DNA of 64,000 nt from Cliona cf. orientalis. Lineage: Eukaryota; Porifera; Demospongiae; Clionaida; Clionaidae. The notes under the pieces are model-generated. The model had not been told where the DNA came from, did not search any database, and saw only the letters and a program-made list of their open reading frames with translations. The stretch's first letter is position 1. Each line of letters begins with the position of its first letter. The stretch spans positions 10,707,029 to 10,771,028 of the forward strand of contig OZ005692.1 of assembly GCA_963930775.1 (NCBI GenBank), written 5' to 3'. This document shows, in pieces, positions 5,241-60,588 of the stretch. A program made the translations under genes and the position numbers.

Positions 5241-5285
5241 CTATGATGGTAGTGCATACATGTATACATAATAGCTACCATAATA

Positions 5286-5498
5286 CCGTATAGTGGGAAA
5301 CTTTCGAGGGAAAAATCTTCATGAATTTCTTGATTTTTATAGCCTGTTCTCATTGGCAAAAATTTATTCTGCAAATTTTGTGCTGTGCAATTGCATAGAA
5401 GCAATCAGTTTAACATTCCATGAAAGTTTTCTCTGTGAAATGCTCACTTCCTATTCATCCGTGAAAGTTTTCTCCCTTGAAGGTCTTCCGCTATACAG
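5286..5498. mobile_element. MITE with CCGTATAG-type ends
   Basis: Inverted ends (ccgtatagtgggaaactttc and its imperfect complement ending ctatacag) are flanked by TA on both sides. The same family recurs at 22168-22371. It lies between WDHD1 exon 5 and the K1 leader repeats. Confidence 0.6.
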
Positions 5499-5500
5499 TA

Positions 5501-6866
5501 GCCAAGAATTTCACTGGGCAAATTTTCACCAAGCCTATCTATATCAGATTCTGCCTTTACTTACAGAAACATTCAGATTTTAATGTGATACATGGGAATG
5601 GCATGCCTAAAATTTCGTGGAGAATACTTTTGTGGGTGGTAGCCAAAATGGCAAAAAATTTCTCTTGATGCCGGTAAATATATTGGCTATAGTATATATA
5701 TCACAATGGGAACCATGATTATGAATAATTTAAGCAAACTACATGTATGGACTTCATGAGCAGGGGAGTTTTGGAAGCTAGGTAGTCACATGGTCTATGA
5801 AATTTTTTTTATTTATGCCCCTTTATTATATTCTGTGAAATGCGCTTGCTTGCTACTGATATGTTTAAATATCATGGGCTAGAGTGACATTATTACACTT
5901 AGGAAGGAGAGGGAGAGTCTGGATACACTCCAGGACCTATGGTGGTAGTGCATACATGTATGTATACTTAATAGCTACCATATTATTATAGCCAAGAATT
6001 TTTCACCGGACAGATTTTCACCAAGCCTAGCTAGCTATGTCTGCATTAATTTATAGAAACATTCAGTGGAATAAATTTTAATGTGGTAAAGTTGCCATCT
6101 CTTCTATGCAACCGTTAACGAAGAGCAGAATAAATTTTTGCCAATGTGAACAGGTATAGCCAAAATATTGGCAAAAGTTTTCTCTTGATGTAAATATTGG
6201 CTATATATAATATATCATAATGGGAGCCACGATTATGAATAACTTTACATGCATGTATGGATTTCATGAGCAGGGAGTAGGGGGAGTTTTGGTAGCTAGG
6301 TATAGTCACATGGTCTATGAAAATCGTTTTTATTTACGCCCCTTTTTATATTCTATGAAATGCACTTGCTTCAGCCTTGCTACTGGTATGTTTAAGTGTC
6401 ATGGGATACCATAATAATTATTATAGCCAAGAATTTCACCAGACAGATTTTCACCAAGCTTAGCTATGTCTGCATTAATCTACAGAAATTAACATTCAAT
6501 GAAATAATTGTGGTAAAGTTGCCACGTCTTCTATGCAATCGTCAACACGGGACAAAATTTGTAGAATAAATTTTTGCCAGTCAGAACAGGTAGCCAAATT
6601 TTTTTTATCTTGGTGTAAATATTGGCTATGGTATATTAAATATTATACATATACTTAAGGAACGTATTTATCGGTAGATCTATAGTAATGGGAACCATGA
6701 TGATGAATAACTTAAGCAAACTATATGTGTGGACTTCATGAGCAGGGAGTAGGGGGAGTTTTGGTAGCTATAGGTAGTCACATGGTCTATGAAAATTGTT
6801 CTCTATTTACGCCCCTTTATAAATTCTGTGAAATGCACTTACTTGCTACTGGTATGTTCAAGTGTC
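5501..6866 (+). repeat. Triplicated K1 leader/promoter block with a second partial copy of WDHD1 exon 5
   Basis: Three imperfect tandem copies with a period of roughly 430-490 bp start near 5501, 5990 and 6424. Each ends with the kinase leader (gagcaggg...agtcacatggtctatga...cgcccctt) and a ...gtgtcATGg-like start (near 5873, 6402 and 6867). Only the last copy is joined to kinase code. Just after the first copy, 5878-5944 resembles the 5' half of WDHD1 exon 5 on the minus strand without a full reading frame. No other gene is seen here. Confidence 0.65.
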
Positions 6867-9800
6867 ATGGCTGTGAAACCAGCAACATTCACTGGGTTTG
6901 ATCCCTACAAGCTGACTGGAGTTACAGTGACAGATCGAAAGCTGGGACATGGCTCCTATGCTACTGTGCTAGAACTGGAGTACATGGGACTGAAATGTGC
7001 TGGCAAGAAGATCCATGAACTGCTGCTAGAGCAGGGAGATGCCAGCTACACTGTTTGCAGATTCGAGAAAGAATGTCGTCTACTTAGTGAAGTACGCCAC
7101 CCCAACATTGTCCAATTTCTGGGAGTCTATTTCCAGCAAGGAGTGCGAGCACCCATCCTAGTCATGGAGTTTCTCCCCACCAACCTCACCTCCTGCATTG
7201 AGCAATATGGCATTCTCTCAAAGGAGATCAGCTACTCCATCCTTCGTGATGTGGCCCTGGGCTTACGCTACCTCCACAGCCAAACTCCTCCCATCATTCA
7301 CCGAGATCTCTCTTCCAACAATGTCCTTCTCACCCCCAACATGACAGCCAAGATCTCTGATCTGGGTGTGGCAAGTATATTCAAAAAGTTGACCCCTCTA
7401 CAGGTCAGTCGCATGACCCAGACTCCTGGCACCCCTGCCTTCATGCCACCAGAGGTGATGGTAGCCAACCCCAACTATGGCACAAGTGTTGACATGTTCT
7501 CCTACGGCATTATGATGATCCACATGCTCAGTGGTCAGTGGCCAGAGCCACAGGTTGGTCCGAGTCGAACTGAAGGAGGCGAACTAATTTCAATCACAGA
7601 AGCTGAACGACGTGAGGAGTATTTTGAAGCGATTAACGATGGTCATCCTCTGAAGGAGTTTGCTCAAAGATGCATCAATAATGATCCCCAGCTGAGACCA
7701 CATGCTGGTGATATTATTGGGCGAGTTAGTCGAGTACGAACACCGTTTCCTGCCAACCAACTGGAAATGCTGAGACAAATTGAGCAACTAAAATTAAAGT
7801 ATTCCAGTGAAATTGAACAGCTTCAACTTAAATTGAGGGATATGAATACTCAGAGACAATTGACAAATGATGAAACCAAAGCAGAAAAAACAGAACTCGA
7901 ATCGAACATTAGAACTTTAGAAAACCAAGTACAAACGCTACTTCAAGAACCTACAAGACAAATGACAGAGGCACAAGAACAATATAGAATACAATTGGAA
8001 AGGGAAAGGGAAACATATGAAGTACAGCTTACTAGTGAGAGAGAAGCAAACAGCATATTGAAATTTGAAATAACTAATGTTAATTCAAAGCTACAATCTG
8101 AAAAAATAGGGAAGGATTCTACCATTCAAGAAATGGATGCCTCTATCCAACGAAAGGATTCTGAACTTGAAGCCAAAAGCAGAGCTTTAAAAGAGAAAGA
8201 TGAAACTATCTCAGAATTGAATAAACAAATCACCAAAGCAAGAGAGTACCTGGCTACTAGTAAACTACAGGTGAGTGCTTACACTACTTCTGATTATCTG
8301 CATGTATACATGTAGATATGCATGAACACCTGCAGCTAATGCAGGAGGCCATGTCTAGACAGCTTCCATGATTTTTTAAGCATAGATATGCATGAACACC
8401 TGTAGCTATAGTGCAGGAGGCCATGTTTAGACAGCTTCCATGATTTTTTTAGCATAGATATGCATGAACACCTGCAGCTAATGCAGGAGGCCATGTCTAG
8501 ACAGCTTCCATGATTTTTTTAAGCATAGATATGCATGAACACCTGTAGCTATAGTGCAGGAGGCCATGTTTAGACAGCTTACATGATTTTTTTAGCATAT
8601 AGATATGCATGAATACCTGCAGCTTATGCAGGAGGCCATGTCTAGCATAGATATGCATGAACACCTGTGGCTCATGCACCAGGCCATGTTTAAACAGCTT
8701 CCATGATTTTTTTAGCATAGATATGCATGAACACCTGCAGCTAATGCAGGAGGCCATGTCTAGACAGCTTCCATGATTTTTTTAAGCATAGATATGCATG
8801 AACACCTGTAGCTATAGTGCAGGAGGCCATGTTTAGACAGCTTACATGATTTTTTAGCATAGATATGCATGAATACCTGCAGCTTATGCAGGAGGCCATG
8901 TCTGGCATAGATATGCATGAACACCTGTGGCTCATGCACCAGGCCATGTCTAGACAGCTTCCATGATTTTTTTAGCATAGATATATGCATGAACACCTGC
9001 AGCTAATGCAGGAGGCCATGCATGTCTAGACAGCTTCCATGATTTTTTTAAGCATATCCAGGTCAAAGCAAAGGACCTATATTAATATTATTATATATAG
9101 ACATGAATCTTATCAACTGTTTCAGATGTGAATTACAACATAATCTTTTTACTATACTGTATTGGTCTGTCCAGGACTCCCCCCATGTAATAATGTGAAT
9201 TTAATATCAGGATTAATATTAATAGCTCTCCAGATCATATACTCTGAATGATATTGTATATCAAGCATAAAATCTGAGACTCAGATAGCTTGACAATCCT
9301 TACCTATTATTGTGTGGACGACAGCAGTGCATTGTGCATTATAGAAAAGTAGACTCTGGGATCATAAATTTTTAAGGAGCAATGCCCCCTCCCTCAACAG
9401 TTTCAGCGAACAACCTTATGATGCAGTCAATAATATTCACTAATAATTATTATAATGACCACAGGCACTTCAGGTTAGTATCACTTGGAAACCATGTGCT
9501 AACCTACCAGTCAAATTAAACGGAGGACTTACAACAGTCATCAATGGCAAGGTCTACTGTGGGGGAGGAAAGACTTGTAATACTGAGGATGCGTACATTG
9601 TCTACTGTTATGACCCATCACAAGACAATTGGACCACTCTACCACCACTTCCTGTCAATTGCTTCGGTCTGGGTCAAGTCAATGGTAAGCCAGTAGCGGT
9701 TGGGGGATGTAAAAACAGAGCAACAAACGATGTATACATGTATGATGAGCAATCTCAAATATGGGAGCAGACCATTCCTCCCATGCCAACAGCTAGATGG

Positions 9801-10415
9801 TCCCCAGATGTCTTGAGCCTCCAGTCAGCACTTGTAGTGGCAGGTGGATGCATATCATTGATATCATCAACATTTACAGCAGCAGTTGAAATCTTCAAAC
9901 CAGGCACATCACAATGGTACAAAGCTGACGCACTACCAACAGCGTGTAGTCACATATCACTTGGTCTAGTTGCTATCAACAACACATGCTATGCACTAGG
10001 AGGATACTGCAGCGGATCAAACCTCACTCAAGCGCTCCATGCCTCAGTTGATGATCTCCTTGGCAATGCTGTACCAGCCAACCAGACAACCAATAGTGGT
10101 AGCAGTGACACTCACGATCAGTCAGCTTGGAAGACTCTACCCAACACTCCAACCTATCAACCAGCTGCAGCTGTGCTAGCTGGCCACCTTCTTGCTATAG
10201 GAGGGAAAGAAATCTCTGGAGGAGATGCTGCCAAGAAGGAAGTCTACATGTACTCTCCCTCCGCCAACTCCTGGGTCTACATCAATGATCTACCTGCTCC
10301 ACGATCTGCCACTGCAGCTGCTGATTTATCATCAACAGAGGTCCTAGTGATTGGAGGCTGGGATGATGATGGTATAATGGATACTGTGTACAAGGGTACA
10401 CTTACATTACAGTAA
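6867..10415 (+). CDS. K1: kelch kinase, subfamily B, intact
   Basis: Exon 1 is 6867-8270 (468 codons), exon 2 is 9465-10415 (316 codons plus stop); predicted protein 784 residues. The start at 6867 was chosen because all paralogs share agtgtcATGgct there, although the frame is open 26 codons further up. The kinase domain has the glycine loop GHGSYATV, the CAGKK lysine, HRDLSSNN, DLG in place of DFG, and a PPE motif. A short charged coiled coil follows, then six kelch blades. The donor CAG/gtgagt and acceptor accacag/GCA keep phase 0. The coiled coil is shorter than in the paralogs. The gene lies wholly within WDHD1 intron 4 on the opposite strand. Function is inferred as a cytosolic serine/threonine or tyrosine kinase of TKL type; there is no signal peptide or membrane segment in the predicted protein. 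Confidence 0.9.
8311..9057. repeat. Minisatellite of ~70-bp units in the K1 intron
   Basis: About ten copies of a unit with gatatgcatgaacacctg, gcaggaggccatgt and agacagcttccatgattttt. Two variants alternate (ctgcagctaatgcagg and ctgtagctatagtgcagg), giving a ~140-bp higher-order period. Open frames across it are products of the repeat. Confidence 0.85.
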
Positions 10416-11001
10416 CTATGACGATGCACATGAACACGACATTCTACTTTTGACTTAATACAAGAGCAGTCTGTTCAAGTGATATAACTTACAGCCGTAT
10501 ACACAACCATGTTTATCGTATGCTATAATATGTATAATTTTTATATAATTATGGACAGTATGTTATATATTGTGCATGCAGAGATATTATATTAACCAAT
10601 TAATTATTATGAACAGTATTATAATATTGTGTTTTGCAGATAATATTATATCTTAACCAATTATGACTATATATGGATAGTATGTTGTGTTGTGCAGAGA
10701 TTATAATTGTAGATCTATGCAGCTATGTATAGTTAAATTTTTATATCTTAACCAATTACAAAATTATGATAGTATGTTATAATGTTATGATTATAGATAT
10801 CTTATATCGCATGGTTAACGTACTATAATATCGTATGGTTGGTATTCATGTACTACAGGATATCTAGCATGGGACTGCAATTGCAAAGGTCACCCCTCAG
10901 AATCAATAAACTTATATTAATTCATTGCCCCCACCAGGCTCAAACTCTGCAAGACTCCCCCAACCACCCCATCATTGAATTTAATTACTGCTTGGCTGCA
11001 C
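10416..11001. other. AT-rich spacer between the K1 stop codon and WDHD1 exon 4
   Basis: Contains repeated short AT-rich segments (attatggacagtatgttat variants near 10550, 10610, 10670 and 10770). It probably holds the K1 3' UTR. No gene seen. Confidence 0.5.
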
Positions 11002-12249
11002 CTTATTTAGAAGAGACCATATTTTCACCGATCCATCACAGCAGGAAGAGCCCTGCAGTGGATTTATTAGTGCACTATAAAATTATGTAGGCATTGATAA
11101 AAGTAAGATTCAAGTATTGGTATAGAGAGACTCTATAAGTACAGAAAAGTGAACTTGGCTTTAAATTTCATACTGCATGCTTCCACCTGCTAACTTCACT
11201 CGCCTCATACCATCACATAAATATTATTATGTAACCATCTGAACACAATAATTTTTAGATATTAGCTCACCAATAATTCCCCCCGGGGGTCAAATTTCAC
11301 CCAGAGCAGGGGGGCCTCGTGTCCGTGTAGGGTGTACGTCTTTGATGAGTCAGCAATCTCCACAACCTTGATGGTGAACTCTGCTGACCCGGCAGCTAGG
11401 TGGGTGTGGCCAACACTGACATCCAGGCATGTGACTGGAGCTGTGAATCTCATTAAGATACCTTCACATGATCCCTAAGAGAGAAATTCACATGTACACA
11501 AAATTGAACGTTTAAAAAGATATATAGTGAACAAAATTGACATATTTTGGGCCAAGAGCAGGATATTAGTTGCCATAAAGCGACATTAGTCACATTATGC
11601 ATGAAAAAATTATGCAATTCGTCAAGACACTCTTACTTTATTAATATGTTATCTTCATGCATGTGTATGGCATTATTCGGTATAGAACAAAGATTACTAC
11701 TGGCTTACATTAGTAGTGAATGCCTGTACAGTGTTATCATCCATTGCCACGGCAACAACATCAGCCCCGCCCCCCTCCTCCTCCTCCTCCCGCTCGGCAG
11801 GTGCTGTGTAGCAGACCAGGGCAGTGAGTTTGGAGGAGGAAACAGAGAACTCAGAAACATCATCATCTTCGAGATCAACAAACGTACGCACATCACAGTC
11901 ACTGCCACACGTCGCTATGTGCCTGGGGGAAGACAACAAGCAACATGGGTACAATTTATGGGTGAGGTAAAGGTCGTCACTGTTGACCATCACTCCAAGG
12001 TTCTAGCAGCTTTCGAGAGCTCGTAGTTCAGACTGTGTAGTCAATAGATCATTACGTTAGTCTATTCACTACTTTATATAATAGAATAACAGTCGTAGGA
12101 CCTCATATTATCTCTGTGCTAGCCATGATTTAATTTGATAGGTCCTGTATTCATCGAGACAAAAAGTGGACGGACCTTTTAGAGTTGAAGGTGAGATGAG
12201 TGGGGCCCTCAGAGTGAGCGTAGCGTCGGGAAGCAGGCTCACAACTCAT
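11002..12249 (-). CDS. WDHD1: WDHD1 exons 1-4, cassette 1 (the intact copy)
   Basis: Exon 1 is 12176-12249 and starts ATG AGC TGT (MSCEPASRRYAHSEG). Exon 2 is 11709-11922, exon 3 is 11271-11474 and exon 4 is 11002-11052. All have consensus AG/GT borders and the phases agree; exon 4 then joins exon 5 at 5240 in phase 0. The product is the N-terminal WD40 propeller: CGSDCDVRTF, an acidic EREEEEE stretch coded by a GAG run, HTHLAAGSAEFTIKVV and SCCDGSVKIW. These match the start of animal WDHD1. It is the only one of six cassettes in which all four exons are open and correctly phased, so it most likely supplies the real 5' end. The intron 4 it implies (5241-11001) contains K1. Confidence 0.92.
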
Positions 12250-13076
12250 TTTCACAGACTGATCCTTCGATCGGATGTGATAGCTGAACTCCAAATGCCT
12301 TGCCTCCAAACTCCCGCCAAAAGTGTTAGTACCAACCCAGGTCCAATTCCCGATCTCTAATACTCGATTCCGTACGGCAAGGCTCACGCGCATGCGCATA
12401 CGCGCAATGAAGTGCATTTTAATATCGAAATAGGGATTAATATCTTTGAGATTTAAACACCTCCTTGTGATATTCATTAAATATTACTGACAATACATGT
12501 CTCTAGACAATTCTAGGACACTTTCCCAAAAACTTTGATTTCGGAAAGTCTCCATACACCTGTGCAAAGGAACATTGGACATGGACAATGTCATAATAAA
12601 TCCTGTACAATATCGCCTTATTCCTTACTTTGTTAGTGTGAGGCAGCCAAGCCAGGCAATGACCGTAGGCCAAATTAAAGTCAGAGTGGCATGTCATATT
12701 CAGTCAGTCAGTCATGGTACCGGTCCTAAGAGTAGAATGAGAGTCTGCATACACTCCTAGATCCTGTGGGGGGCAGTGATGCAACATTAATTTTCTAATA
12801 TCCCATGTACTCAAAACTCAGCAGCTGCTGTGCTGACCAATTGCATCCTGGATGAATAATGAATACTATTTCATGCATGACAATTAAGATAAATACAGGC
12901 TGTCACATGATCTATGGTCACTGTGTTTTGGGCCCTTCAGTCTGTCTACGCCCCCTTTTACTTTCACAATGCATAAAATCAGGTACTTCTTAATAAGGAA
13001 TACTGTGGCCATCACATGATCCCTGGATTTCATGTACACCCCTAAAGCATTTTACTTCGTTAGAGCTACAAGTGTC
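12250..13076. other. Divergent intergenic region between WDHD1 exon 1 and K2, with an exon 5 relic
   Basis: The WDHD1 start (minus) and the K2 start (plus) face away from each other, 828 bp apart, so this stretch should hold both promoters. At 12622-12757 the minus strand resembles WDHD1 exon 5 (gagtgtatgcagactct at its 5' side, cttggctgcctcacac at its 3' side), but the frame is broken. A (cagt)n run lies inside the relic. The kinase leader block ends it. Confidence 0.6.
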
Positions 13077-14775
13077 ATGGCTGGCAGAGCAGCATTCACT
13101 GGATTTGATCCCTACAAGCTGACTGGAGTTAGAGTGACAGATCGAGAGCTGCATGGGACATGGCTCCTATGCTACTGTGCTAGAACTGGAGTACATGGGA
13201 CTGAAATGTGCTGGCAAGAAGATCCATGAAGTGCTACTGAAGCAAGGAGACACTAGCTACTATGCTCACAGATTTGAGGAAGAATGTCGTCTACTCAGTC
13301 AAGTACACCACCCCAACATTGTCCAGTTTCTGGGAGTCTATTTCCAGCAAAGAGTGCGAGCACCCATCCTAGTCATGGAGTTTCTCCCCACCAACCTCAC
13401 CTCCTGCATTGAGCAATATTATGGCATTCTTCCAAAGGAGATCAGCTACTCCATCCTTCATGACGTGGCTCTGGGCTTGTGCTACCTCCACAGCCAAACT
13501 CCTCCCATCATTCACAGAGATCTCTCTTCCAACAATGTCCTCCTCACCCCCAACATGACGGCCAAGATCTCTGATCTGGGTGTGGCCAGGATCCTCAACC
13601 TGACCCCTCTACAGGTCAGTCACATGACCCAGACTCCTGGCACCCCTGCCTACATGCCACCAGAGGTGATGGTAGCCAACCCCAAATACGACACAAGCGT
13701 TGATGAGTTCTCCTACGGCATTATGATGATCCACATGTTCAGTGGTCAGTGGCCAGAGCCACAGATTGGACCAATTCATGCAGAACCTGATGGTAGAATG
13801 ACTCCAGTAGCTGAAGCTGAGCGACGTGAGGTTTTCCTTCGAGCCATTGGAAATGATCATCCTCTGATGGACCTCATCCTTAAATGCATCCATAACTACC
13901 CCAAGTCAAGGGCTCATACCAGTGAGATTGTGGGGCGACTAGCAGAGATGGTGTTGCAGTTTCCTGCCTCCTTTGCCAATCGACTGGAAATGCTGAGACA
14001 AATTGAAGCAGATGGAAGGGAGAAAAGATCCTTGACCGAAGAGGGGGTGAGAAAGGACGAGGCTGTTCAGCAAAAAGAAAGCCAAATCTCATCACTCAGA
14101 GAAGAAGTTCGAATGGAGAAGGAACAAAAATCTGCAGAAATTGATCGACTAAAGCTAGCCCACTCCAGTGAAGTGGAACAGCTCCAGCTGCAACTTAAAG
14201 ATATGAAAACTCAGAATCAATGTACAAAAGCCGAGAATGAGGCTGAGATAGCAGAACTCAAATCTAAGAATCATGCTTTCAAAACTCAGGTAGAGAATAA
14301 GACCAAGATCCTTGCAGAAGTAAGAGAGCAATCTGCAAGACAGCTGAGAGAGGAACATGAAATGCAGAGAAAAGAAAAAGAACAATTAGAGATTCAGCTA
14401 GCGAAAGAAAAACAACTATCTGCTGAGGAGAGAGAAGCAAACATAAAATTAACGTCCGATGTTTCAAAGCTGCAATCAGATATCACAGACAAGGATACTG
14501 CTATTCAAATGAAAGAAGCTGTTATCAGAAGAAAGGATTCTGAACTTGAAGCCAAGAGCAGAGCACTAGGAGAGAAAGATGCAACTATCTCAGCAATGAG
14601 TGAACAAATCACCAAAACAAGAGACTACCTGGCTACTACTAAACAACAGGTGATAGTAATAATATTATATATTATTATCATAATAATAATACCTTAAGGT
14701 GACAACTATTTGCAGGTAAATTTTTCTTGCAATTAAGCATTTTGTACGTGGAAATAGTACGAGGACAAGAGATCT

Positions 14776-14874
14776 ACAGTATTTAGCATCCCGATGGCCC
14801 CAAGCTGTGACACCCGAGCATAGCGAGGGTGTTACTAAGGAGACAGAGGGATGCTGAATACTGTGGATCCCATT
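14776..14874. mobile_element. Small foldback element in the K2 intron
   Basis: The ends acagtatttagcatccc and gggatgctgaatactgt are inverted with one mismatch. A second inner hairpin (gtgacaccc/gggtgttac) lies within. About 99 bp, non-coding. Confidence 0.5.
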
Positions 14875-15086
14875 GGCCGAGGTGAGCTAAGTTATTTAGA
14901 GTTTTACAACTGTTGCTATATAGTAGTACAGCTATTTGCCTTGGAGCTCTCATAATACCATGGACCCTATTGGCCAAAATTTACAAGTAACTAAGCTACT
15001 TAGTTACTTCCTATTGACCAATCAGATTACAGGAAAGTGGCAGTAAAATTCTAAATATATGTATCTAATCAGGGTTTCATCCAGTG

Positions 15087-15112
15087 GGGGGGGGGGGTGG
15101 TTTGGGAAGCTT

Positions 15113-15141
<29 letters not shown>
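15087..15141. repeat. Poly-G then poly-C tract
   Basis: A G run is followed, after a short spacer, by about 30 C in a row. Such tracts are unreliable in assemblies. It lies in the K2 intron. Confidence 0.6.
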
Positions 15142-15143
<2 letters not shown>

Positions 15144-16625
15144 AAAAAAGGAAGAGAGACAGAAAAAAGGGAAAGGAGAGAGAGAGGTAGGGGGGAAGGG
15201 AGCGTGTTATTTTTTTGCACTGCGGTGGAAGTGATCAGTAATAATAAGAGCACTAGATGATATCATGTAATACCTCAGTGATATCCACATCTTAATGGTA
15301 ATTTATGGGGGAGGAGGGGGGGACACATTGCGTGAAACTGCCATACCCACTTCTCCCCCAAAAATTTTTTTCTGGATGAAACTCTGCTAATGTTAGCAGG
15401 TATATTTGGGGGGCAATTATACAATATCAACATATCACTCGCAAAAATAGTCACCTTAAAGTATAATAATTACATATATTATACCTCTGGTTATTTATAG
15501 ATGCTCATGATACACCAAAGCAATAATTAACACAATGTGATATACATACAAATACTATGTGATGATTTTAGACTCTTCAGGCAAGTATCACCTGGGAACA
15601 GTGTGCTAACCTACCAACCAAAGTAAGTCTAGTCAAGACTACAGTCATCAATGGCAAGGTCTACTGTGGAGGAGTGACTAATGATGATGATGATAGGTAC
15701 ATTATCTACTGCTATGATCCATCACAAGACAAGTGGACCACTCTAACACCACTTCCTGTCAAATTGTTTGGTCTGGGTCAAGTAAATGGCAAGCTAGTAA
15801 CCGTTGGGGGATGGAAGAACAGTACTGGGACTAGTTATGTATACACATATGATGAGCAATCTCACAAGTGGAAGCAGACCATTCCTCCCATGCCAACAGC
15901 TAGATGGTACCCAGGTATCTTGAGCACCCAGTCAGCACTTGTAGTGGCAGGTGGACTCACAGAATCACATTTCACTGCAGTTGAGATCTTTAAACCAGAT
16001 ACATCACAGTGGTACAGGACTGACCCACTACCAACAGCTTGTTGTAACATATCACTGGTTGCTATTGGCAACACATGCTATGCACTAGGAGGATACGGCA
16101 GTGGCTCACATCTCAACCAAGCACTCTATGCCTCAGTTGATGATCTCCTTGGCAACGCTGTACCAGCCAACAAGATCACCCACAGTGGTAGCAGTGACAC
16201 TCAGTCAGCTTGGAAGACACTACCCAACACTCCAACCTATCGACCAGCTGCAGCCGTGCTAGCTGGCAACCTTCTTGCTATAGGAGGGGATGAAACATCT
16301 AGAGGAGGAGCTGCCAAGAAGGAAGTGTACATGTACTCTCCCTCCACCAACTCCTGGATCTACATCAGTGATCTACCTGCTCCACGATCAATGACTGCAG
16401 CTGCTGTTTTATCATCAACAGAGGTCCTAGTGATTGGAGGCCATGATGGTCACAGAGTGAATACTGTGTACAATGGTACACTTACATTACTGTAGCTGTG
16501 ATAATGTACATGACAAGATACAACCTACAACCACACACAACCATGTTTATTAAACTTAATCTTTGCCCCTCCAAATTATACAATACTTTCCCATTCCACT
16601 CACTGAATTTACTACTTGGCTGCAC

Positions 16626-25618: not shown

Positions 25619-25790
25619 TAGGAGAGAGAGAGAGGGAATGGTGAAATAAGCGAGAGTGAAACGAGGGAGATAGAGGGAAAGAGAGAGAGAGGAGAGGGAG
25701 GGAGAGAGGATGGTGAAATAAGTGAGAGTGAAACGAGAAAGAGAGAGGATGGTGGGGTAAGAGAGTGTATGAATGGAAGGTCTGTATGCA
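25619..25790. repeat. GA-rich low-complexity tract
   Basis: Purine-rich (gaga)n stretches with imperfect copies of ggtgaaataagcgagagtgaaacgag. Non-coding. Confidence 0.7.
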
Positions 25791-25943
25791 ATATGTTACT
25801 AGTTGCAATATCTACCTGTAGTGACCGACACATCAAGATTGGTGTTGGATGCAGTGCCTTGATCCAAGGTTTATACTTCAAGCCTGATTAAGAAAAGATA
25901 GTCATTTATGAGACACATGATTATTACATGAAATTTTATATAC

Positions 25944-47838: not shown

Positions 47839-47875
<37 letters not shown>

Positions 47876-49506: not shown

Positions 49507-50807
49507 CTTATTTTGAAGTGACCATATCTTCACCGATCCATCACAGCAGGAAGAGGCCTACAGTGGATTAAGTCGTACAGTATAGGAATTGATAAAAATT
49601 ACAGTATTTCTTCTAAAAATTCGGCCCTTCTAATTATTCGTCACCCTTTACCTAATGATTGAAAATAGTCTCTAATCTTCGGCAAAGGTCGTCACGCGTA
49701 TATGCTATAAACGGTAATAGAATGCGCAAGCAACCTCTAAAAATTCGGCGAAGCTAAACCAATATTATTATTTTGATGCCAAATTTTTAGAAGAAATACG
49801 GTATTAATAATTTTGTAAAATTCAAGCATTTCCAAGTATGGTAAAGAGAGACTCCGGATACAGCATATCTTTGGCATCCAAAAATAGCACTTCTTCCACC
49901 TACTAATACCATCACATACTGTACACAGAGAAATTTTCGCCAGGAAAACAATTTTTTTTCCTGCTCTCATTGGCAAAAATTTTATCATGCTAATTTTTTT
50001 GTCCTGGCGAAATTTTTCCCACCAAAATTTTATTTCTTTGCAATATAAAGGGCTTGGTGAAATTTATGAAACTTTCACAATGACATAATATTATATGGTC
50101 ACATAACATAAATGCTATAATTTTTGGCCATTAGCTCACCAATAGTTTCCCCCCAGGGTCAAATTTCACCCAAAGCAGGGGGGCCTCGTGTCCGTGTAGG
50201 GTGTACGTTTTTGATGAGTCAGCAATCACCACAACTTTGATGGTGAACTCCGCTGATCCAGCAGCCAGGTGGGTGTGGCCAACACTGACATCCAGGCATG
50301 TGACTAGAGCCATGAATCTCATTAAGATATGATCCCTAGGAGAGAAATTTACATGATATTGTACACAAAATTTTGAAGCTAGTTTAAGATGTACAATGAA
50401 TAAAAGTAGGAAAAGTATTTAATAGCCCTAAAGCAACATTAGTCACATGATGATCATGAAAAAAAAAAGATTATGCATTCATCAAAACGGGTCTCTTACT
50501 TCATAATTATCTTTTATGTGTTCCTAGCATTATCTTCATCCATATGTATGGCATATTATTCAGTATAGAGCAAAGATTACTACTGGCTTACACATTAGCA
50601 GTGAATGCCTGTAGCTACAGTGTTGTCATCCATTGCCACGGCAACGACATCAGCCCCGCCCCCTCCTCCTCCTCCTCCTGCTCGGCAGGTGCTGTGTAGC
50701 AGACCAGGCCAGTGAGTTTGGAGGAGACAGAGAACTCAGAAACATCATCATCTTCAGGACCAACAAACGTACGCACATCACAGTCACTGCCACATGTCAC
50801 TATGTGC
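49507..50807 (-). pseudogene. WDHD1 cassette 5: exons 4, 3 and 2, no exon 1
   Basis: Exon 4 is 49507-49557 (open), exon 3 is 50140-50335 (8 bp deleted near its 5' border) and exon 2 is 50592-50807. Exon 2 carries a 4-nt insertion (gtagctac for gtac near 50611), altered donor bases and a frame change in the GAG run. Exon 1 is deleted; the flank jumps directly to sequence normally upstream of it (near 50870). Confidence 0.8.
49602..49801. mobile_element. MITE, CAGTATTTCTTCTAAAAATTCGG family
   Basis: The left end cagtatttcttctaaaaatt and the right end (complement ccgtatttcttctaaaaatt) are inverted with TA flanks. 200 bp, in the cassette 5 intron between exons 4 and 3. Confidence 0.75.
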
Positions 50808-51540
50808 CTGGGGGAAGAATTATAGGTGAGGTAAAGGGTCGTCATCAGTTGATTACCACTAGTGCCCAAGTCCAATTCCTGATCTTTAATAGCAAGCCGT
50901 ACCTTGGTAGAGCTCTATGTACACTGTATGACTGCTAGATCTAGCGGCTCGCGCACTGCAAATTCATAATATAATAATACATTATTAATTCTTGAGTCAT
51001 AAGTACCACCTTGCGATGTTCACAAAATTAAATTAATGAGAACACTCGATCATAATTTTATTGCCAGTAGACACCGTCCAGGACACATGCTCGTAAACTC
51101 GGACCCTGGTAGCTAACATTGACACACTGTGCAGAGAATGATGTGCACATCACATTATTGCTGTACTGTAAAATTTTGTCTACTGGTATTCTCCTTAGTA
51201 GCTACTATCAGTGTGAGCAAGGCAGGTGATGACCATATGTCAAAGTAAGAGTGATGTTATCATCACACACAGTCAGTCAGGATCCTGAGAGGAGAATGAG
51301 AGTCTGCATGGATACACTCCTGTAGTGGCTGTGATACATAGGGTTAACATTTTAATATCCCATGTAATAATATTATATAGCACTGACCAATACTACATAA
51401 TATCATTGTATAAATAAGAATTATAATACTGGATGACTACTGAATGTTACTTCATGCATGAATACACTCAATAGTTGTGCGACAACCACAATTATTTTGG
51501 GCCCTTCACTCTATCTACACCCCCTTTTACTCAATAATTC
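50808..51540. other. Region upstream of K8 with an exon 5 relic
   Basis: A diverged WDHD1 exon 5 relic (minus) lies at about 51205-51326. No other gene seen. Confidence 0.5.
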
Positions 51541-52035: not shown

Positions 52036-52069
52036 TCATGTCCACCCCCTTTTACTTTATTAGTACTAG

Positions 52070-52112: not shown

Positions 52113-52146
52113 GTACTAGCTAGCTAGCTATAGCTATACAAGTGTC

Positions 52147-55047
52147 ATGGCAGAGAGAGCAACATTCACTGGGTTTGATCCCTACAAGCTGACTGGAGTT
52201 AGAGTGACAGATCAAGAACTGGGACATGGCTCCTATGCTACTGTGCTACAACTGGAGTACATGGGACTGAAATGTGCTGGCAAGAAGATCCACGAGGTGC
52301 TACTGAAACTAGGAGACAGTAGCTACTATGCTCGTAGATTTGAGGAAGAATGTCATCTACTCAGTCAAGTACGCCACCCCAACATTGTCCAGTTTCTGGG
52401 AGTCTACTTCCAGCAAGGAGTGCAAGCACCCATCCTAGTCATGGAGTTTCTCCCCACCAACCTCACCTCCTGCATTGAACGATACGGCATTCTCCCCAAG
52501 GAGATTAGCTACTCCATCTTTCATGATGTGGCTCTGGGCTTGTGCTACCTCCACAGCCAAACTCCTCCCATCATTCACCGAGATCTCTCTTCCAGCAATG
52601 TCCCCCTCACCCCCAACATGACGGCCAAGATCTCTGATCTGGGTGTGGCCAGAATATTCAATAAGTTGACCCCTCTACAGGTCAGTCGCATGACCCAGAC
52701 TCCTGGCACCCCTGCCTTCATGCCACCAGAGGTGATGGTAGCCAATCCCAAATACGACACAAGTGTTGATGAGTTCTCCTATGGCATTATGATGATCCAC
52801 ATGTTCAGTGGTCAATGGCCAGAGCCACAGGTTGGACCAAATCGTACTGCACCTGATGGTGGAATGACTCCAGTATCTGAAGCTGAGCGACGTGAGGTGT
52901 TCCTTCGAGCCATTGAAAATGATCATCCTCTGATGGACCTCATCCTTAAGTGCATCCACAACTACCCTCAGTCGAGGGCTCATGCCAGTGAGATTGTGGT
53001 ACGACTAGCAGAGATGGTGTTGCAGCTTCCTGCCTCCTTTGCCAACCAACTGGAAATGCTGAGACAAATTGAAGAAGATGGAAGGGAAATGCTGAGGCAA
53101 CTTGAAATAGTCGAGGAGGAGAAAAGAGCCTTGACTGAAGAGGGAGAGAGAAAGGACAGGGCTGTTCAGCAAAAAGAAAACCAGATCTCATCACTCAGAG
53201 AAGAAGTTAGAGCTAAGGAGGAACAAAAATCTAGAGAAATTGACCGACTAAAGCTAGCCCACTCCAGTGAACTTGAACAGCTCCAGCTGCAACTTAGAGA
53301 TATGAAAACTCAGAATCAATATACAAAAGCTGAAAATGAGGCTGAGATAGTAGAACTCAAATCTAAGTATTCTGCTTTGGAAACACAGATAGAGAATAAG
53401 ACCAAGATCTTACTTGAAGAAAGAGAGCAATCTGCAAGACAACTGAGAGAGGAACAAGAACAACACGAGATACAATTGAGAGATGAATAAGAACAACATG
53501 AGATACAGTCAAGAAAGGAAAGAGAACTTTTAGAGATTCAGCTAGCAAAAGAAAAAAAACAATTTGCTGAGGAGAGAGAAGCAAACAGAAAATTAATTTC
53601 AGATTTACAGTCGGATTTGTCAAGATCAAAATCAGAAATTACCACTCTTCAAGGTACTGTTTCAAGGCTGCAATCAGATATCACAGACAGGGATACTGTT
53701 ATTCAAATAAAAGAAGCTACTGACAAAAGAAAGGATTCTGAACTTGAAGCCAAGAGCAGAGCTCTAGGAGAGAAAGATGCAACTCTCTCAGCAATGAGTG
53801 AACAAATCACCAAAACAAGAGAATACCTGGCTACTAAGCAACAGGTGAGTAACTACCAACTATTTGCAGGCAGGTTGGTGAGTCCAAATTTTTTGTATGT
53901 GGAAATATGGTACAGGATTGATAAAATTAATTCATAGTGCATAAATTATTCCTGGTAAATATTAGCACCCCCAAAAATAGTTACCATAATGTGCACTACC
54001 TCTGGTTATCTTATTATACATGTATGCTTATGACACTTCATTTAAATAACATGTTGTGCATACATATGCATGTACTATAATATTATTATTATGATAATTT
54101 AGAGTCAGCAGGCAAGTATCATCTGGAAACAGCGTGCTAAGCTACCAATTGGATTATATAATGGAAATACTACAGTCATCAATGGCAAGGTATACTTAGG
54201 AGGAGGAAGTAATGAAAGCTATAATGATGATGGTGACTACATTGTCTACTGCTATGACCCATCACAAGACAAGTGGACCACTCTACCACCACTTCCTGTC
54301 AAACACTTTGGTCTGGGTCAAGTCAATGGCAAGCTAGTAACTGTTGGGGGAGAGAAGGATACTATGAATAAAACTAATGACGTATACATGTATGATGAAC
54401 GATCACAAAAGTGGAAGCAGACCATTCCTCCCATGCCAACAGCTAGACGGTACCCAGGTGTCTTGAGCCTCCAGTCAGCACTTGTAGTGGCAGGTGGACT
54501 TGCACTCAGTTACGTAGATGCAATCGAGATCTTCAAACCAGACACATCACAATGGTACAAAGCTGACCCACTACCAACAGCATGTTGTAATATATCACTA
54601 GTTGCTATTGGCAACATATGCTATGCACTTGGAGGAGACGATGGCTCACAGCTCAACCAAGCACTCTATGCCTCAGTTGATGATCTCCTTGACAATGCTG
54701 TACCAGCCAACCAGACCACCCACAGTGGTAGCAGTGACACTCAGTCAGCTTTGAAGACACTACCCAACACTCCAACTTATCGACCAGCTCCAGCCATGCT
54801 AGCTGGCAACCTCCTTGCTATAGGAGGGAATGAAACATCTAAAGAGGGATCAGCTGCTAAGAAGGAAGTCTACATGTACTCTCCCTCCACCAACTCCTGG
54901 ATCTACATCAGTGATCTACCTGCTCCACGATCTGCCACTGCAACTGCTGTTTTATTATCAGCAGTGGTCCTAGTGATTGGAGGCTGGGGTGGTGGATATG
55001 TGCGCAGAGTGAACACTGTGTACGAGGGTACACTTACGTTACTATGA
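52147..55047 (+). pseudogene. K8: kelch kinase, subfamily A, nonsense codon in the coiled coil
   Basis: Exon 1 is 52147-53844 (566 codons) and exon 2 is 54103-55047 (314 codons plus stop). A TAA at 53488-53490 replaces CAA in a duplicated EEQEQHEIQ heptad, so the product would be a 447-residue kinase plus partial coiled coil with no kelch domain. The frame is open again to the donor and through the whole kelch exon. The kinase motifs are intact except SSSN for SSNN in the catalytic loop, which keeps N151. The acceptor side of exon 2 differs (AGTCAGCAG for ACTCTTCAG). A truncated but functional kinase cannot be excluded. Confidence 0.86.
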
Positions 55048-56349: not shown

Positions 56350-59141
56350 ATGGCTGCCAAAGCAGCTACAGCAACATTCACTGGGTTTGATCCCTACAAG
56401 CTGACTGGAGTTTGTGTGACAAATCGAGAGCTGGGACATGGCTCCTATGCTACTGTGCTAGAACTGGAGTATATGGGACTGAAATGTGCTGGCAAGAAGA
56501 TCCATGAACTGCTGCTAGAGCAGGGAGATGCCAGCTACACTGTTCGCAGATCTGAGGAAGAATGTCGTCTACTCAGTCAAGTACGCCACCCCAACATTGT
56601 CCAGTTTCTGGGAGTCTACTTCCAGCAAGGAGTGCGAGCACCCATCCTAGTGATGGAGTTTCTCCCCACCAACCTCACCTCCTGCATTGAGCAATATGGC
56701 ATTCTCCCAAAGGAGATCAGCTACTCCATCCTTCATGACGTGGCTCTGGGCTTGTGCTACCTCCACAGCCAAACTCCTCCCATCATTCACCGAGATCTCT
56801 CTTCCAACAATGTCCTCCTCACCCACAACATGACGGCCAAGATCTCTGATCTGGGTGTTGCCAGGATATTCAATAAGTTGACCCCTCTACAGGTCAGTCA
56901 CATGACCCAGACTCCTGGCACCCCTGCCTACATGCCACCAGAGGTGATGCTAGCCAACCCCAAATATGATGCAAGTGTTGATGAGTTCTCCTACGGTATT
57001 ATGATGATCCATACGTTCAGTGGTCAGTGGCCAGAGCCACAGGTTGGTCCGAGTCGAATTGAAGGAGGCAAACTGATTCCAGTAACAGAAGCTGAACGAC
57101 GTGAGAAATTTTTTGAAGCAATTGAAGATGGTCACCCTCTGATGGATCTCATTCACAGATGCAGCAATAATGACCCCCAGCTGAGACCACATGCTGGTGA
57201 GATTATTAGGCGAGTTAGTCGAGTAGCTACACAGTTTCCTGCCTCCTTTGCCAATCGACTAGAAATGTTGAGACAAATTGAAAAAGAGAGAAGGGAGAAG
57301 AGTGCTTTGACTGCGGAGGGAGAGAGAAAGGAATGCATTATTCAAGAAAAGAGTGATGAAATTTTGACACATAAAACAAAAATTCAAGCCATGAGTGAGG
57401 AGGGACACAGAAAAGATGGGATTATTCAACAAAAAGAAAGCCAAATTTTATTACTAAGAAAAGAAGCGCAGATTGAGAAGGATAAAAAAACTAGAGAAAT
57501 GGAGAGACTAAAGTTTTCTCACTCCACTGAAGTGGAACAGCTCCAGCTGCAATTTAGAGATATGAAGACTCAGAATCAATGTACAAAAGCTGAAAATGAG
57601 GCTGAGATAGTAGAACTCAAATCTAAGTATTCTGCTTTGGAAACTCAGATAGAGAATAAGACCAAGATCTTACTTGAAGAAAGAGAGCAATCTGCAAGAC
57701 AGCTGAGAAAGGAGCAAGAACAACATGAGATACAGCTGAGAAAGGAAAGAGAACGACTAGAGATTCAGCTAGCAAATGAAAAAGATGCTAATAAAAAATT
57801 AATGTCAGATGTTCAAGATTTACGATTGGATTTATCAAGGTCAAAATCAGGAAATACCACGCTTCAAGGTGCTGTTTCAAGGCTGCAATCAGATATTACA
57901 GATAAGGACACTGTTATTCAAATGAAAGAAGCTATCATTAAAAAAAAGATTCTGAACTTGAATTTAAGAGCAGAGCTCTAGGAGAGAAAGATGCAACTAT
58001 CTCAGCAATGAGTGAACAAATCACCAAAACAAGAGAGTACCTGGCTACTAAACAACAGGTGAATAGCTACTGAGATAATTAGTTGCAGGTATATTTTTTG
58101 TGATTAAAGTGGTGTAGCTTATAATATACAGTTGATGAACTTCAAAATTGCTGTAGTACTGTAACCTAATAGTTAATACATGCAATATACATAATAACAT
58201 TGTACTATGTGTTATTTTAGATTCTTCAGGCAAGAATCACCTGGAAACAGTGTGCTAACCTACCAGCCGGATTAAGTCATATGAAGACTACCGTCATCAA
58301 TGGCAAGGTCTACTATGGAGGAGGAGGAAGAGTAACTGATGATGCTAGGTACATTGTCTACTGCTATGACCCATCACAAGACAAGTGGACCACTCTACCA
58401 CCACTTCCTGTCAGTTGGTTTGGTCTGGGTCAAGTCAATGGCAAGCTAGTAGCTGTTGGGGGAATGAAGAAGAGTACTGGGAAAGAAACTAATGATATAT
58501 ACACAAATGATGAGCGATCTCGAAAGTGGAAGCAGACCATTCCTCCCATGCCAACAGCTAGATACTCCCTAGGTGTCTTGAGCCTCCAGTCAGCACTTGT
58601 AGTGGCAGGTGGAAACACACCATCACATGCAACTACAGTCGAGATCTTCAAACCAGACATATCACGGTGGTACAAAGCTGACCCACTACCAATAACTTGT
58701 TGCAACCTATCACTAGTTGGTATTGATAACACATGCTATGCACTAGGAGGATACAATGGCTCAGACCTCAACCAAGCACTCTATGCCTCAGTTGATGATC
58801 TCCTTGGCAATGCTGTACCAGCAAACCAGACAACCCATAGCAGTGACACTCAGTCAGCTTGGAAGACACTACCCAACACTCCAACCTATCGACCAGCTGC
58901 AGCCGTGCTAGCTGGCAACCTTCTTGCTATAGGAGGGAAAGAAACATCTAAAGGAGGAGCTGACATGAAGGAAGTCTACATGTACTCTCCCTCCTCCAAC
59001 TCCTGGGTCTATATCAGTGATCTACCTGCTCCACGATCTCACACTGCAGCTGCTGTTTTATCATCAACAGAGGTCCTAGTGATTGGAGGCTGGGATGATG
59101 GCAGAGTGAACACTGTGTACAAGGGTACACTTATACTATAA
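56350..59141 (+). pseudogene. K9: kelch kinase, subfamily B, 1-nt deletion at the end of the coiled coil
   Basis: Exon 1 is 56350-58058 and exon 2 is 58221-59141 (306 codons plus stop, open). The kinase domain is complete (GHGSYATV, CAGKK, HRDLSSNN, DLG, PPE). An A run at 57939-57948 has one base fewer than paralogs, shifting the frame and stopping at 57979-57981, about 25 codons before the donor. The lesion is in a homopolymer and could be a sequencing error; if so, the gene would encode about 876 residues. The C-terminal kinase lobe is of B type (PQLRPHAGEIIRRVSRVATQ). Confidence 0.85.
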
Positions 59142-59417
59142 CAATTTGTACTTGTACCATGCAAGAGCTGTCGGTTAAAGTGATACAACCTATATAGCTA
59201 CACACACCATATTTGCTATGTATAATTATGTATCGTCAGTTAATAATAATTGTCAGAGATACAAACATGCTACCATCACTAAGATGTATAGCATTGGGGC
59301 TGCATAGCCCTCCCCCCTCCCAAAAATCATCAGTCCATTGCCCTCCAAATTGTGCAACATTTCCCCCAATCCCCTTCTTTTCACCACTCATTGAATTTGA
59401 TTAGTATTTGGCTGCAC
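59142..59417. other. K9 3' spacer
   Basis: Same 3' flank as K4 (tttgtacttgtaccatgcaagag). No gene seen. Confidence 0.45.
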
Positions 59418-60588
59418 CTTATTTTGAAGAGACCATATCTTCACTGATCCATCACAGCAGGAAGAGGCCTGCAGTGGTAAATATTTATTATTATTTGAGC
59501 ATCTGTATAGAGAGACTCAAGGATACAGAAAAGTGTGCACGCCTTAAATTTCACACAGCATGCAAAATTAGCACTTCCTTTTCCACCCACAAGGTTAACT
59601 CACCAATAATTCCCCCCAGGGGGTCAAATTTCACCCAGAGCAGGGGGGCCTCGTGTCCGTGTAGGGTGTATGTCTTTGATGAGTCAGCAATCTCCACAAC
59701 TTTGATGGTGACCTCTGCTGACCCGGCAGCTAGGTGGGTGTGGCCAACACTGACATCCAGGCATGTGACTGGAGCCGTGAATCTCATTAAGATACCTTCA
59801 CATGATCCCTGAGAGAAATTCACATGTACACAAATTGAAGCTAGTTTAAGATGTACAATGAACAAAATTAGGAAAAGAGCCGGATATTTAGTTGCCCTAA
59901 AGTGACATTAGTCACATGATGCATGTGAAAAAAAATCATGCAATTCATCAAAACAGGTCTCTTACTACATAATTGTCATTTACGCGTTCCTAGCATTATC
60001 TTCATGCATGTGTATGGCATTATTCAGTATAGAGCAAAGATTACTACTGGCTTACATTAGTAGTGAATGCCTGTACAGTGTTGTCGTCCATTGCCACGGC
60101 AACGACATCAGCCCCGCCCCCTCCTCCTCCTCCTCTCGCTCGGCAGGTGCTGTGTAGCAGACGAGGCCAGTGAGTTTGGAGGAGACTGAGAACTCAGAAA
60201 CATCATCATCTTCAAGACCAACAAACGTACGCACATCACAGTCACTGCCACACGTCACTATGTGCCTGGGGGAAGATAACAAACAACATGGGCACAATTT
60301 TTGGGTGAGGTAAAGGGTCGTCACTTGTTGCCACCACTCCCAAGATTCTAGCAGCTTTCGAGAGCTCGTAGCGCAGACTGTGTAGTCAATAGATCATTAC
60401 GTTAGTCTATTCACTACTTTATATATTTAATAGAATAACAGTCGTAGAACCTCATATCTCTGTGATAGCCATGATTTTGATAGATCCTGTTCATGAGATA
60501 AAATGTGGACGTACCTTTTAGAGTTGAAGGTGAGATGAGTGGCGCCCTCCGAGTGAGCGTAGCGTCGGGAAGCAGGCTCACAACTCAT
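59418..60588 (-). pseudogene. WDHD1 exons 1-4, cassette 6 (decayed)
   Basis: Exon 1 is 60515-60588 (start and donor intact), exon 2 is 60056-60265 (4 bp shorter than cassette 1), exon 3 is 59604-59808 (one extra base near its 3' end) and exon 4 is 59418-59468 (open). Exon 2 leaves frame at the GAG run. All splice borders remain, so it could still be transcribed. Confidence 0.82.

What the first reader, a model, noticed from the sequence alone, without database searches (positions are those of the whole stretch)
5241..60588. A nested gene and its host's 5' exons amplified together
A kelch kinase gene sits antisense inside WDHD1 intron 4, and the unit (kinase, kelch, WDHD1 exons 4-1) was then tandemly duplicated to at least six partial or full units. 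Usually tandem arrays copy whole genes. Here the head of an essential replication gene is carried along as a passenger, leaving one intact head next to the body and five orphan heads.
Basis: partly seen in the sequence, partly recalled or inferred. Interest (0 to 1): 0.88.

Follow-up and report, generated by a model that had tools for sequence, protein, structure and literature searches.

The report
Replication-gene head carried by kinase-kelch amplification
A gene for a sensor-like protein sits backwards inside an intron of the replication gene WDHD1 and has been copied many times, often dragging along the first part of WDHD1, so that one working start and many broken ones now lie in the genome.

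Summary
WDHD1 runs on the minus strand with one open frame through exons 1-7. A two-exon kinase-kelch gene lies antisense in its 5.8-kb intron 4; six exon 1-4 "heads" lie among nine kinase copies in the window. The body was found once; all five orphan heads in the window are broken.

Three corrections. (1) The unit also holds decayed exons 5-6 on the other side of the kinase (11 of 15 duplicated kinases in 164 kb), so the kinase was nested in intron 4 before amplification. (2) The array runs about 43 kb past the window; head exons also lie on four other contigs (C2, C5, C12, C13) and an exon 5 relic on C6. Introns are kept, so copying was DNA-mediated. (3) Truncated passengers at module edges are known (human RCCX).

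New: array heads differ mostly at synonymous sites although 9 of 10 exon 5 relics are 30-36% diverged, and kinase and kelch trees disagree. This suggests unequal exchange that recycled heads through the working position. The kelch domain varies mainly at Keap1-type binding positions, so recognition diversity is the likely driver and WDHD1 the passenger. RNA, reads and relatives were not available.

The parts
3057..5240 (-). WDHD1 exons 7 (3057-3401), 6 (4985-5077) and 5 (5145-5240): first exons of the body, which was found once in the genome
   Evidence: GT-AG, open frame; PF24817 pieces; PF12341 only here
5241..11001 (-). WDHD1 intron 4, host of the nested gene
6867..10412 (+). Nested kinase-kelch gene K1: exon 1 6867-8270 (kinase + presumed coiled coil), exon 2 9465-10412 (kelch)
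   Evidence: PF00069 E 1.6e-41; Kelch_1 E 2.1e-25
11002..12249 (-). Intact WDHD1 head A: E4 11002-11052, E3 11271-11474, E2 11709-11922, E1 12176-12249
12250..12330 (-). WDHD1 5' flank kept in units; E2F-like TTTGGCGGGA about 72 bp above the ATG (motif name recalled)
   Evidence: exact motif in 4 of 7 array heads that have E1 (A, B, F, G); not in C, H, J
12462..12778 (-). Decayed exon 6-5 relic of unit 2, between head A and kinase 2
13077..16492 (+). Unit 2 kinase (frameshift near N-terminus) and kelch
16631..18522 (-). Orphan head B: +2 in E2, E4 donor lost
18888..19031 (-). Exon 5 relic of unit 3
19307..21964 (+). Unit 3 kinase and kelch, open frames
22918..31977 (-). Orphan head C: E4 and E3 with open frame; about 7.4 kb in intron 2 (23391-30809); E2 in two pieces, 30810-30850 and 31497-31679, about 650 bp apart; E1 31904-31977
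32225..32525 (-). Exon 6-5 relic of unit 4
32737..36248 (+). Unit 4 kinase (open); kelch frameshifted
36534..37852 (-). Orphan head D: E1 not found, E4 -1, two 1-bp shifts in E3, 10-bp insert and 9-bp loss in E2
38011..38132 (-). Exon 5 relic of unit 5
38443..41214 (+). Unit 5 kinase and kelch, open frames; no head found after it
42876..44152 (+). Kinase copy with internal deletion; no kelch or head found after it
45580..49245 (+). Kinase (in-frame stop after the kinase domain) and kelch with internal duplication
49507..50807 (-). Orphan head E: E1 not found, -8 in E3, shifts in E2
51062..51333 (-). Exon 6-5 relic upstream of the kinase at 52.1 kb
52147..55044 (+). Kinase (in-frame stop after the kinase domain) and kelch; no head found after it
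56383..59138 (+). Kinase (frameshift near its end) and kelch
59418..60588 (-). Orphan head F: net -4 in E2, +1 in E3; E1, E4 and splice sites kept

Best explanation
A kinase-kelch gene came to lie antisense in WDHD1 intron 4. A DNA-level tandem duplication then took one block from intron 6 to about 60-150 bp above the WDHD1 start codon: exons 6-5, the nested gene, exons 4-1 and the promoter. Further unequal exchange between the long kinase-kelch repeats multiplied and shuffled the block, and DNA-mediated copies went to other chromosomes. Likely driver (inferred): selection for many kinase-kelch genes whose kelch domains differ at the ligand-binding face. The WDHD1 head is a passenger. Only the head nearest the body can make WDHD1 in this assembly; the others decay. 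SHOWN: anatomy, body found once, broken orphans, exon 5-6 relics in register, dispersed copies with introns, discordant kinase and kelch trees, kelch variability pattern. INFERRED: order of events, unequal exchange as the engine, selection on recognition, lack of function of the orphans. The confidence is for anatomy and order of events; for the driver alone it is about 0.6.
For: Exon 5-6 relics, all minus strand, lie 212-1122 bp upstream of 11 of 15 duplicated kinases in the 164-kb stretch; this is predicted if the kinase sat between E5 and E4 before duplication. Two dispersed copies on C2 keep the order E5-kinase-kelch-E4-E3-E2. Introns are retained between head exons in dispersed copies. 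Body found once. Only head A of 10 array heads and remnants is intact. One unit (95.4-95.7 kb, window numbering) holds E6-E5 at 76% plus a piece of intron 6. Kinase and kelch trees disagree with strong support (the kelch exons of u13.1 and u96.8 pair at 100; their kinases fall on opposite sides of a split with support 100). Kelch: 52 of 63 exons open over 280 aa; variability peaks one residue after GG and fifteen before it; pN/pS 1.22 at these positions against 0.69 elsewhere (12 array copies); kinase domain 0.38 (14 copies).
Against: No transcript or protein data. 4 of 15 duplicated kinases (42.9, 45.6, 56.4, 91.1 kb) have no detected exon 5-6 relic. Most kinase-kelch copies elsewhere were not read around, so their link to WDHD1 is untested; 5 headless relatives that were read showed no E4 within 1.5 kb. 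Support for head-linked copies grouping together is weak (57-69). At least 5 of 9 kinases in the window have a frameshift, stop or deletion, so many units may be dead and copy-number drift could suffice. The kelch positions were chosen after seeing the variable sites; pS is also raised there (0.295 against 0.140), so conversion or local mutation may add to the variation, and the bootstrap interval 0.92-1.73 includes 1. The 63 kelch exons are mostly best-scoring matches, a choice that favours open ones.
Confidence: 0.8

Rival explanations
1. Divergent-pair origin: the kinase first stood upstream of WDHD1 exon 1; duplication of exons 4-1 plus kinase, with loss of the body-proximal head, left a kinase in intron 4 secondarily.
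For: Heads and following kinases stand head to head across the array. In the self-comparison (pieces of 250 bases or more, E up to 1e-10) K1 matches the other kinases only from about its start codon on. One dispersed copy (C12) has exon 1 upstream of the kinase and no E4 was found beyond its kelch.
Against: It does not place exon 5-6 relics between exon 1 and the kinase; these are there for 11 of 15 duplicated kinases and an exon 5 relic stands before the kinase in two dispersed C2 copies.
Confidence: 0.08
2. Alternative-head cluster: several heads serve the same body as alternative 5' ends, as in UGT1A or clustered protocadherins (recalled).
For: E4 donors are kept in 4 of 5 orphan heads in the window and joins would be in phase; head differences are mostly synonymous (array orphan-orphan pN/pS 0.26, bootstrap 0.17-0.38, neutral simulation 0.54-1.08).
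Against: All 5 orphan heads in the window, and all 4 heads or remnants beyond it on C4, have frameshifts, missing exons or lost sites; the lesions are largely private.
Confidence: 0.06
3. Neutral segmental duplication (a rival to the driver only, not to the anatomy): the array is a product of unequal crossing-over with no benefit; kinase-kelch copies are mostly dead.
For: At least 5 of 9 kinases in the window are broken; the whole-kelch pN/pS of 0.73-0.82 lies in the 0.54-1.08 range simulated for neutral heads.
Against: 52 of 63 kelch exons read are open; the kinase domain is constrained (0.38); variability sits on particular positions of the blades while GG hardly varies.
Confidence: 0.25
4. 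Assembly artefact: haplotypes or repeats mis-joined.
For: Tandem repeats of this size are hard to assemble (general knowledge).
Against: No N in 164 kb and nearest copies differ by 3-14%; lesions and insertions mark units as distinct; similar units sit on other contigs.
Confidence: 0.03

Closest known systems
Human RCCX module (STK19-C4-CYP21-TNX; TNXA and STK19B truncated passengers), PMC8362596 (abstract and passages seen)
   Same: Tandem module whose edges cut neighbouring genes; truncated copies (TNXA, STK19B) ride along; non-allelic recombination changes copy number and can make chimeric TNXA/TNXB genes
   Different: There the cut genes stand at the ends of the module; here the amplified gene lies inside an intron of the cut gene, the 5' part of a replication gene is carried, and units have spread to other contigs
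F8A / int22h in human F8 intron 22, PMC3211038 (passages seen)
   Same: Antisense gene nested in an intron of a host gene, with extra copies of the nested gene and adjacent DNA elsewhere; recombination between copies disrupts the host gene
   Different: Three int22h copies and, in the passages seen, no host exons in the copied block; here host exons 6-1 are copied and there are many copies
Variable-first-exon clusters (UGT1A, clustered protocadherins; recalled)
   Same: Several 5' modules in line upstream of one constant body, in-phase donors
   Different: Orphan heads are broken; no evidence of use
Keap1-type six-bladed kelch domains (PDB)
   Same: Fold (first Keap1 chain in the list: TM 0.70 on the query, prob 1.00). 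Hypervariable positions fall where, by recalled Keap1 numbering, several of the contacts named in PMC6891428 lie (passages seen)
   Different: Encoded with a protein kinase, not BTB-BACK (recalled for Keap1); many paralogs with a variable face; other Keap1 contacts (such as Arg483, Gly530, Ala556) do not map to these two classes

Membership tests
Nested gene (antisense, intronic) | Complete gene within one intron of another gene, opposite strand | tested here: met
   K1 6867-8270 + 9465-10412 (+) inside intron 4 5241-11001 (-); transcription not tested
RCCX-type module with truncated passengers | Tandem unit whose edges cut a gene and leave truncated copies | tested here: met
   Unit edges in intron 6 and above exon 1; broken head copies
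RCCX-type module with truncated passengers | Non-allelic exchange among units | tested here: inconclusive
   Discordant kinase and kelch trees fit exchange; events themselves not seen, one haplotype only
Variable-first-exon cluster (UGT1A, protocadherin type) | Several intact alternative 5' modules | tested here: not met
   0 of 9 further heads or remnants on C4 intact
Variable-first-exon cluster (UGT1A, protocadherin type) | Transcripts joining each module to the body | not testable with these tools
   No RNA data
Retrocopies | Loss of introns in copies | tested here: not met
   Gaps between E2, E3 and E4 kept in dispersed copies L019-L023
WDHD1/Ctf4/And-1 | N-terminal WD40 domain and Mcl1_mid domain | tested here: met
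   first domain recognised exon by exon, the spliced protein was not scanned as a whole
WDHD1/Ctf4/And-1 | C-terminal Ctf4_C and HMG box | tested here: inconclusive
   Ctf4_C match 27.7 bits (cut-off 26.4) over profile positions 50-80 only; HMG not searched
Keap1-like kelch domain | Six kelch blades, propeller fold | tested here: met
   Kelch_1, 6 stretches; pLDDT 81.1

The most novel reading that the evidence does not exclude
A 'host-head carousel': because the repeated kinase-kelch genes flank the WDHD1 heads, unequal exchange between them repeatedly swaps which copy of exons 1-4 stands next to the single WDHD1 body. An essential replication gene would thus have its first four exons replaced over and over by a neighbouring, fast-evolving recognition-gene array, and orphan heads would be retired working heads. 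Predicts that individuals or sister species use different heads with the same body.
Probability: 0.35. Interest if true: 0.75.

Novelty: new variant of a known kind. Interest (0 to 1): 0.55.

Why it matters
It shows how an amplifying nested gene can drag the 5' part of a replication gene through a genome while one intact copy survives. Decayed exons inside the unit give a readable order of events. If the carousel reading holds, it would be a natural system in which to watch the first exons of an essential gene (essentiality is known from other organisms, recalled) being replaced by non-allelic exchange. The kelch pattern points to a large family of kinase-linked recognition proteins with a diversified binding face; two paper searches listed no report of it.

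Tried and rejected
Divergent-pair origin: not the leading model because of the exon 5-6 relics. Alternative working heads: not favoured for this assembly because all orphan heads are broken. Retrocopying: rejected, introns kept. 'Dead on arrival' for all array heads: not favoured, since array orphan-orphan pN/pS is 0.26 after masking and 0.31 without. Private changes of array orphans are 31 N: 22 S against all other heads, 58% N where neutral change would give 69-76%; binomial p 0.005 against 0.76, 0.07 against 0.70, 0.32 against 0.65. Private changes of dispersed heads are 47 N: 9 S, as expected of dead sequence, although their pairwise pN/pS is 0.42 (0.26-0.69), also below the simulated neutral mean of 0.76. 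One search dropped 16-base stretches under 70% identity to head A before counting; the second piece of head C's E2 (30810-30850) was left out. Headless relatives: 5 of 7 in the same tree group had 1.5 kb downstream of the kelch searched, 0 of 5 with E4; exon 5 relics were found near two of the seven by genome search (C4:5316556; C6:7021777). One further relic lies at C4:10333265 in the neighbouring kinase-kelch cluster. Related species: none held for this genome. Of 60 planned kelch neighbourhoods outside the array, none could be fetched at full length; 40 kelch exons alone were fetched. Papers: searches gave no report of this locus in the listings seen (open-licence library only). The first exon model was wrong for E2/E3 because anchors matched another unit; corrected. 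The iterated exon 5-6 profile (second part) drifted into exon 1 of some units, so only its first, single-sequence round is used for counts.
Full report
WHAT IS THERE. WDHD1 is read on the minus strand: exons 1-7 at 12176-12249, 11709-11922, 11271-11474, 11002-11052, 5145-5240, 4985-5077 and 3057-3401, the six introns GT-AG, one open frame. Pfam's WDHD1 first WD40 domain matches these exons in pieces; Mcl1_mid matches the body and no other place at E up to 1. Intron 4 (5241-11001) contains a kinase-kelch gene on the other strand, exons 6867-8270 and 9465-10412, joined in phase. The finding's coordinates 5241, 11002 and 60588 are exact edges.

COUNTS. Within the window there are 6 heads (E1-E4 pieces), 9 kinase copies and 8 kelch copies. 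In the 164 kb read (window plus 20 kb left and 80 kb right) there are 16 kinases; head remnants continue to 103.6 kb in window numbering and the last kelch ends at 106.8 kb. Kinases outnumber heads, so some units have no head left. Of the 9 kinases in the window at least 5 carry a frameshift, stop or deletion; those at 6.9, 19.3, 32.7 and 38.4 kb are open.

THE HEADS. Only head A, next to the body, is intact. B has +2 bases in E2 and a lost E4 donor. C has about 7.4 kb in intron 2 and E2 in two pieces about 650 bp apart; the pieces overlap by 8 profile positions (173-180), as a target-site duplication would make (not tested further). D lacks a detectable E1 and has indels in E2, E3 and E4. E lacks a detectable E1 and has -8 in E3. 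F has net -4 in E2 and +1 in E3. Heads G, H and J and an E4 remnant (I) beyond the window are also broken. The lesions of the array heads are largely private; no frameshift is shared by all.

THE ORDER OF EVENTS. A single-sequence search with exons 5-6 and intron 5 finds, besides the true copy and a partial local duplicate at 5876-5958, 11 relics in 164 kb, all on the minus strand and each upstream of a kinase, 212-1122 bp away; 11 of the 15 duplicated kinases have one, those at 42.9, 45.6, 56.4 and 91.1 kb do not. Five shuffled copies of the stretch gave no hit. The order along the chromosome is therefore E1 | E6-E5 - kinase - kelch - E4-E3-E2-E1 | E6-E5 - kinase ... This is what a tandem duplication makes if the kinase already sat between E5 and E4. 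One unit (95.4-95.7 kb) keeps E6, intron 5 and E5 at 76% over 279 columns and a piece of intron 6, without the 1.3-kb terminal-inverted-repeat element that now fills intron 6 of the true gene. The right edge of the unit lies about 60-150 bp above the start codon, judged from where flank homology between units stops.

SPREAD. DNA searches find further WDHD1 head pieces at 8 places on four other contigs: C2 (about 4.617-4.620, 4.640, 5.152 and 5.269 Mb), C5 (5.109, 5.172 Mb), C12 (6.705 Mb) and C13 (6.405 Mb). Exon 5 relics outside the array lie at C2 (4.640, 5.160, 5.274 Mb), C4:5.317, C4:10.333 and C6:7.022 Mb. Seven of the 8 head places were read; in all 7 a kinase and a kelch lie beside the head in antisense. 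In 6 of 7 the head follows the kelch as in the array; in C12 its exon 1 stands upstream of the kinase. Two C2 copies keep exon 5, kinase, kelch, E4, E3, E2 in the original order. Gaps between head exons are kept, so copying was at DNA level. The kinase-kelch family itself is larger: 131 kelch matches at E up to 1e-10, distant kelch proteins included, and 85 kinase matches at E up to 1e-60, both lower bounds because only 128 of 737 and 81 of 1684 candidates were scored; a second cluster lies at C4:10.32-10.49 Mb. A kelch tree puts array and dispersed head-linked copies together with seven copies without a detected head, apart from that cluster, but with weak support of 57-69.

HOW IT PROBABLY EVOLVED. 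Exon 5 relics differ from true exon 5 by 0.30-0.36 in 9 of 10 cases (the tenth, in the 95-kb unit, by 0.08), and from each other by a median of 0.185 (the eleventh relic, at 73.4 kb, was not in that alignment). Introns 1 and 2 of heads A, B, F and G differ by 6-15%. So most relics began to decay before the present heads separated. Head differences are mostly synonymous: pN/pS is 0.26 among array orphans (bootstrap 0.17-0.38) and 0.22 between A and them, against 0.54-1.08 and 0.54-1.05 in 60 neutral star simulations (0.31 and 0.24 before masking). Variants shared by two or more array heads are 9 N: 20 S, private ones of orphans 38 N: 27 S (Fisher p 0.025). Dispersed heads' private changes are 47 N: 9 S, as expected of dead sequence, while their pairwise pN/pS is 0.42 (0.26-0.69). 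Kinase and kelch trees of the same units disagree strongly; K1 is the most divergent copy in both. I infer that heads were copied outward from, and possibly back into, the working position by unequal exchange between kinase-kelch repeats, and decayed after leaving it. A plain series of outward copies from a constrained source head explains part of this; coexistence of several constrained heads, or swapping of the working head, would explain the rest. The data do not separate these.

WHY THE UNIT WAS AMPLIFIED. The kinase domain is constrained (pN/pS 0.38, 14 copies) and the kelch exon is near the neutral range overall (0.82 in 11 array copies; 0.73 in 23 copies and 0.82 in 9 of the neighbouring cluster's group). 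Yet 52 of the 63 kelch stretches put in are open over more than 280 residues; two of the 63 are partial pieces of one exon and 40 were taken from the best-scoring matches, which favours open ones. The variation is periodic: over the six blades mean variability is 0.58 one residue after GG and 0.52 fifteen residues before it (high in 5 of 6 blades), against 0.01 at GG itself (23 copies). The 30 positions chosen had mean 0.451; none of 308 circular shifts reached this. They were chosen after seeing which sites vary. At them pN/pS is 1.22 (bootstrap 0.92-1.73) and pS is raised too, elsewhere pN/pS is 0.69 (12 array copies). The kelch model (pLDDT 81.1) matches designed kelch propellers, NS1-BP, Keap1 and KLHL20. 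By recalled Keap1 numbering, Tyr525 and Tyr572 sit one after GG, and Ser363, Ser508 and Ser555 fifteen before it; these are named among ligand contacts in PMC6891428 (passages seen). Other contacts named there do not fall in these two classes. I therefore think the family are kinase-linked recognition proteins under diversifying selection; this is inference.

WHAT IS KNOWN. The RCCX module has truncated passenger genes at its edges and reshuffles by non-allelic recombination (PMC8362596, abstract and passages seen). F8A is an antisense gene nested in F8 intron 22 with extra copies elsewhere (PMC3211038, passages seen). The present case joins the two: the amplifying gene is nested inside the passenger. 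Five searches gave no report of it in the listings seen.

VERDICT. The surprise is moderate: passenger truncation is known and nested genes are known; their combination with spread over several contigs, a unit whose history can be read, and a diversifying nested gene is new to me. New variant of a known kind.

Noticed in passing
window 9465-59138 (kelch exons); C4:10.32-10.49 Mb cluster: Kelch exons vary mainly at positions one after and fifteen before the GG of each blade, Keap1-type binding positions (recalled numbering); suggests a large diversified recognition family of kinase-kelch proteins.
   Followed up: partly
window about 60880-64000, minus strand: LTR retroelement pol-like coding sequence (reverse transcriptase, RNase H, integrase-like by eye; recalled, not searched) upstream of head F; runs off the window.
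   Followed up: no
window 3618-4986: About 1.3-kb element with 45-base terminal inverted repeats (84%) in WDHD1 intron 6, absent from the copy at 95.4 kb (L014): an empty-site pair.
   Followed up: partly
window 30851-31496: About 650 bp inside exon 2 of orphan head C, flanked by an 8-position overlap of the exon match: looks like an insertion with target-site duplication.
   Followed up: no
window 5499-6870: Three tandem copies, about 72-73% alike, of a 400-450-base segment between exon 5 and the nested kinase; a partial exon 5 duplicate lies at 5876-5958.
   Followed up: partly
window 41763-41971 and 55353-55561: 93% complementary inverted pair 13.4 kb apart, each after a kinase-kelch copy without a head; may mark a local rearrangement.
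   Followed up: no
window 26623-27362, 51513-52062, 8309-9057: Internal tandem repeats, the last within the K1 intron.
   Followed up: no
orphan heads, several exons: Many disabling inserts are 4-5 bases (TGCA, TAGC, CTGCG, CCTA, CCGG); perhaps repair or transposon footprints.
   Followed up: no
C5:5.109 and 5.172 Mb; C13:6.406 and C4:5.313 Mb: Pairs of dispersed kelch copies differ by only about 0.06-0.08 in summed tree branch length, pointing to recent secondary duplications.
   Followed up: no
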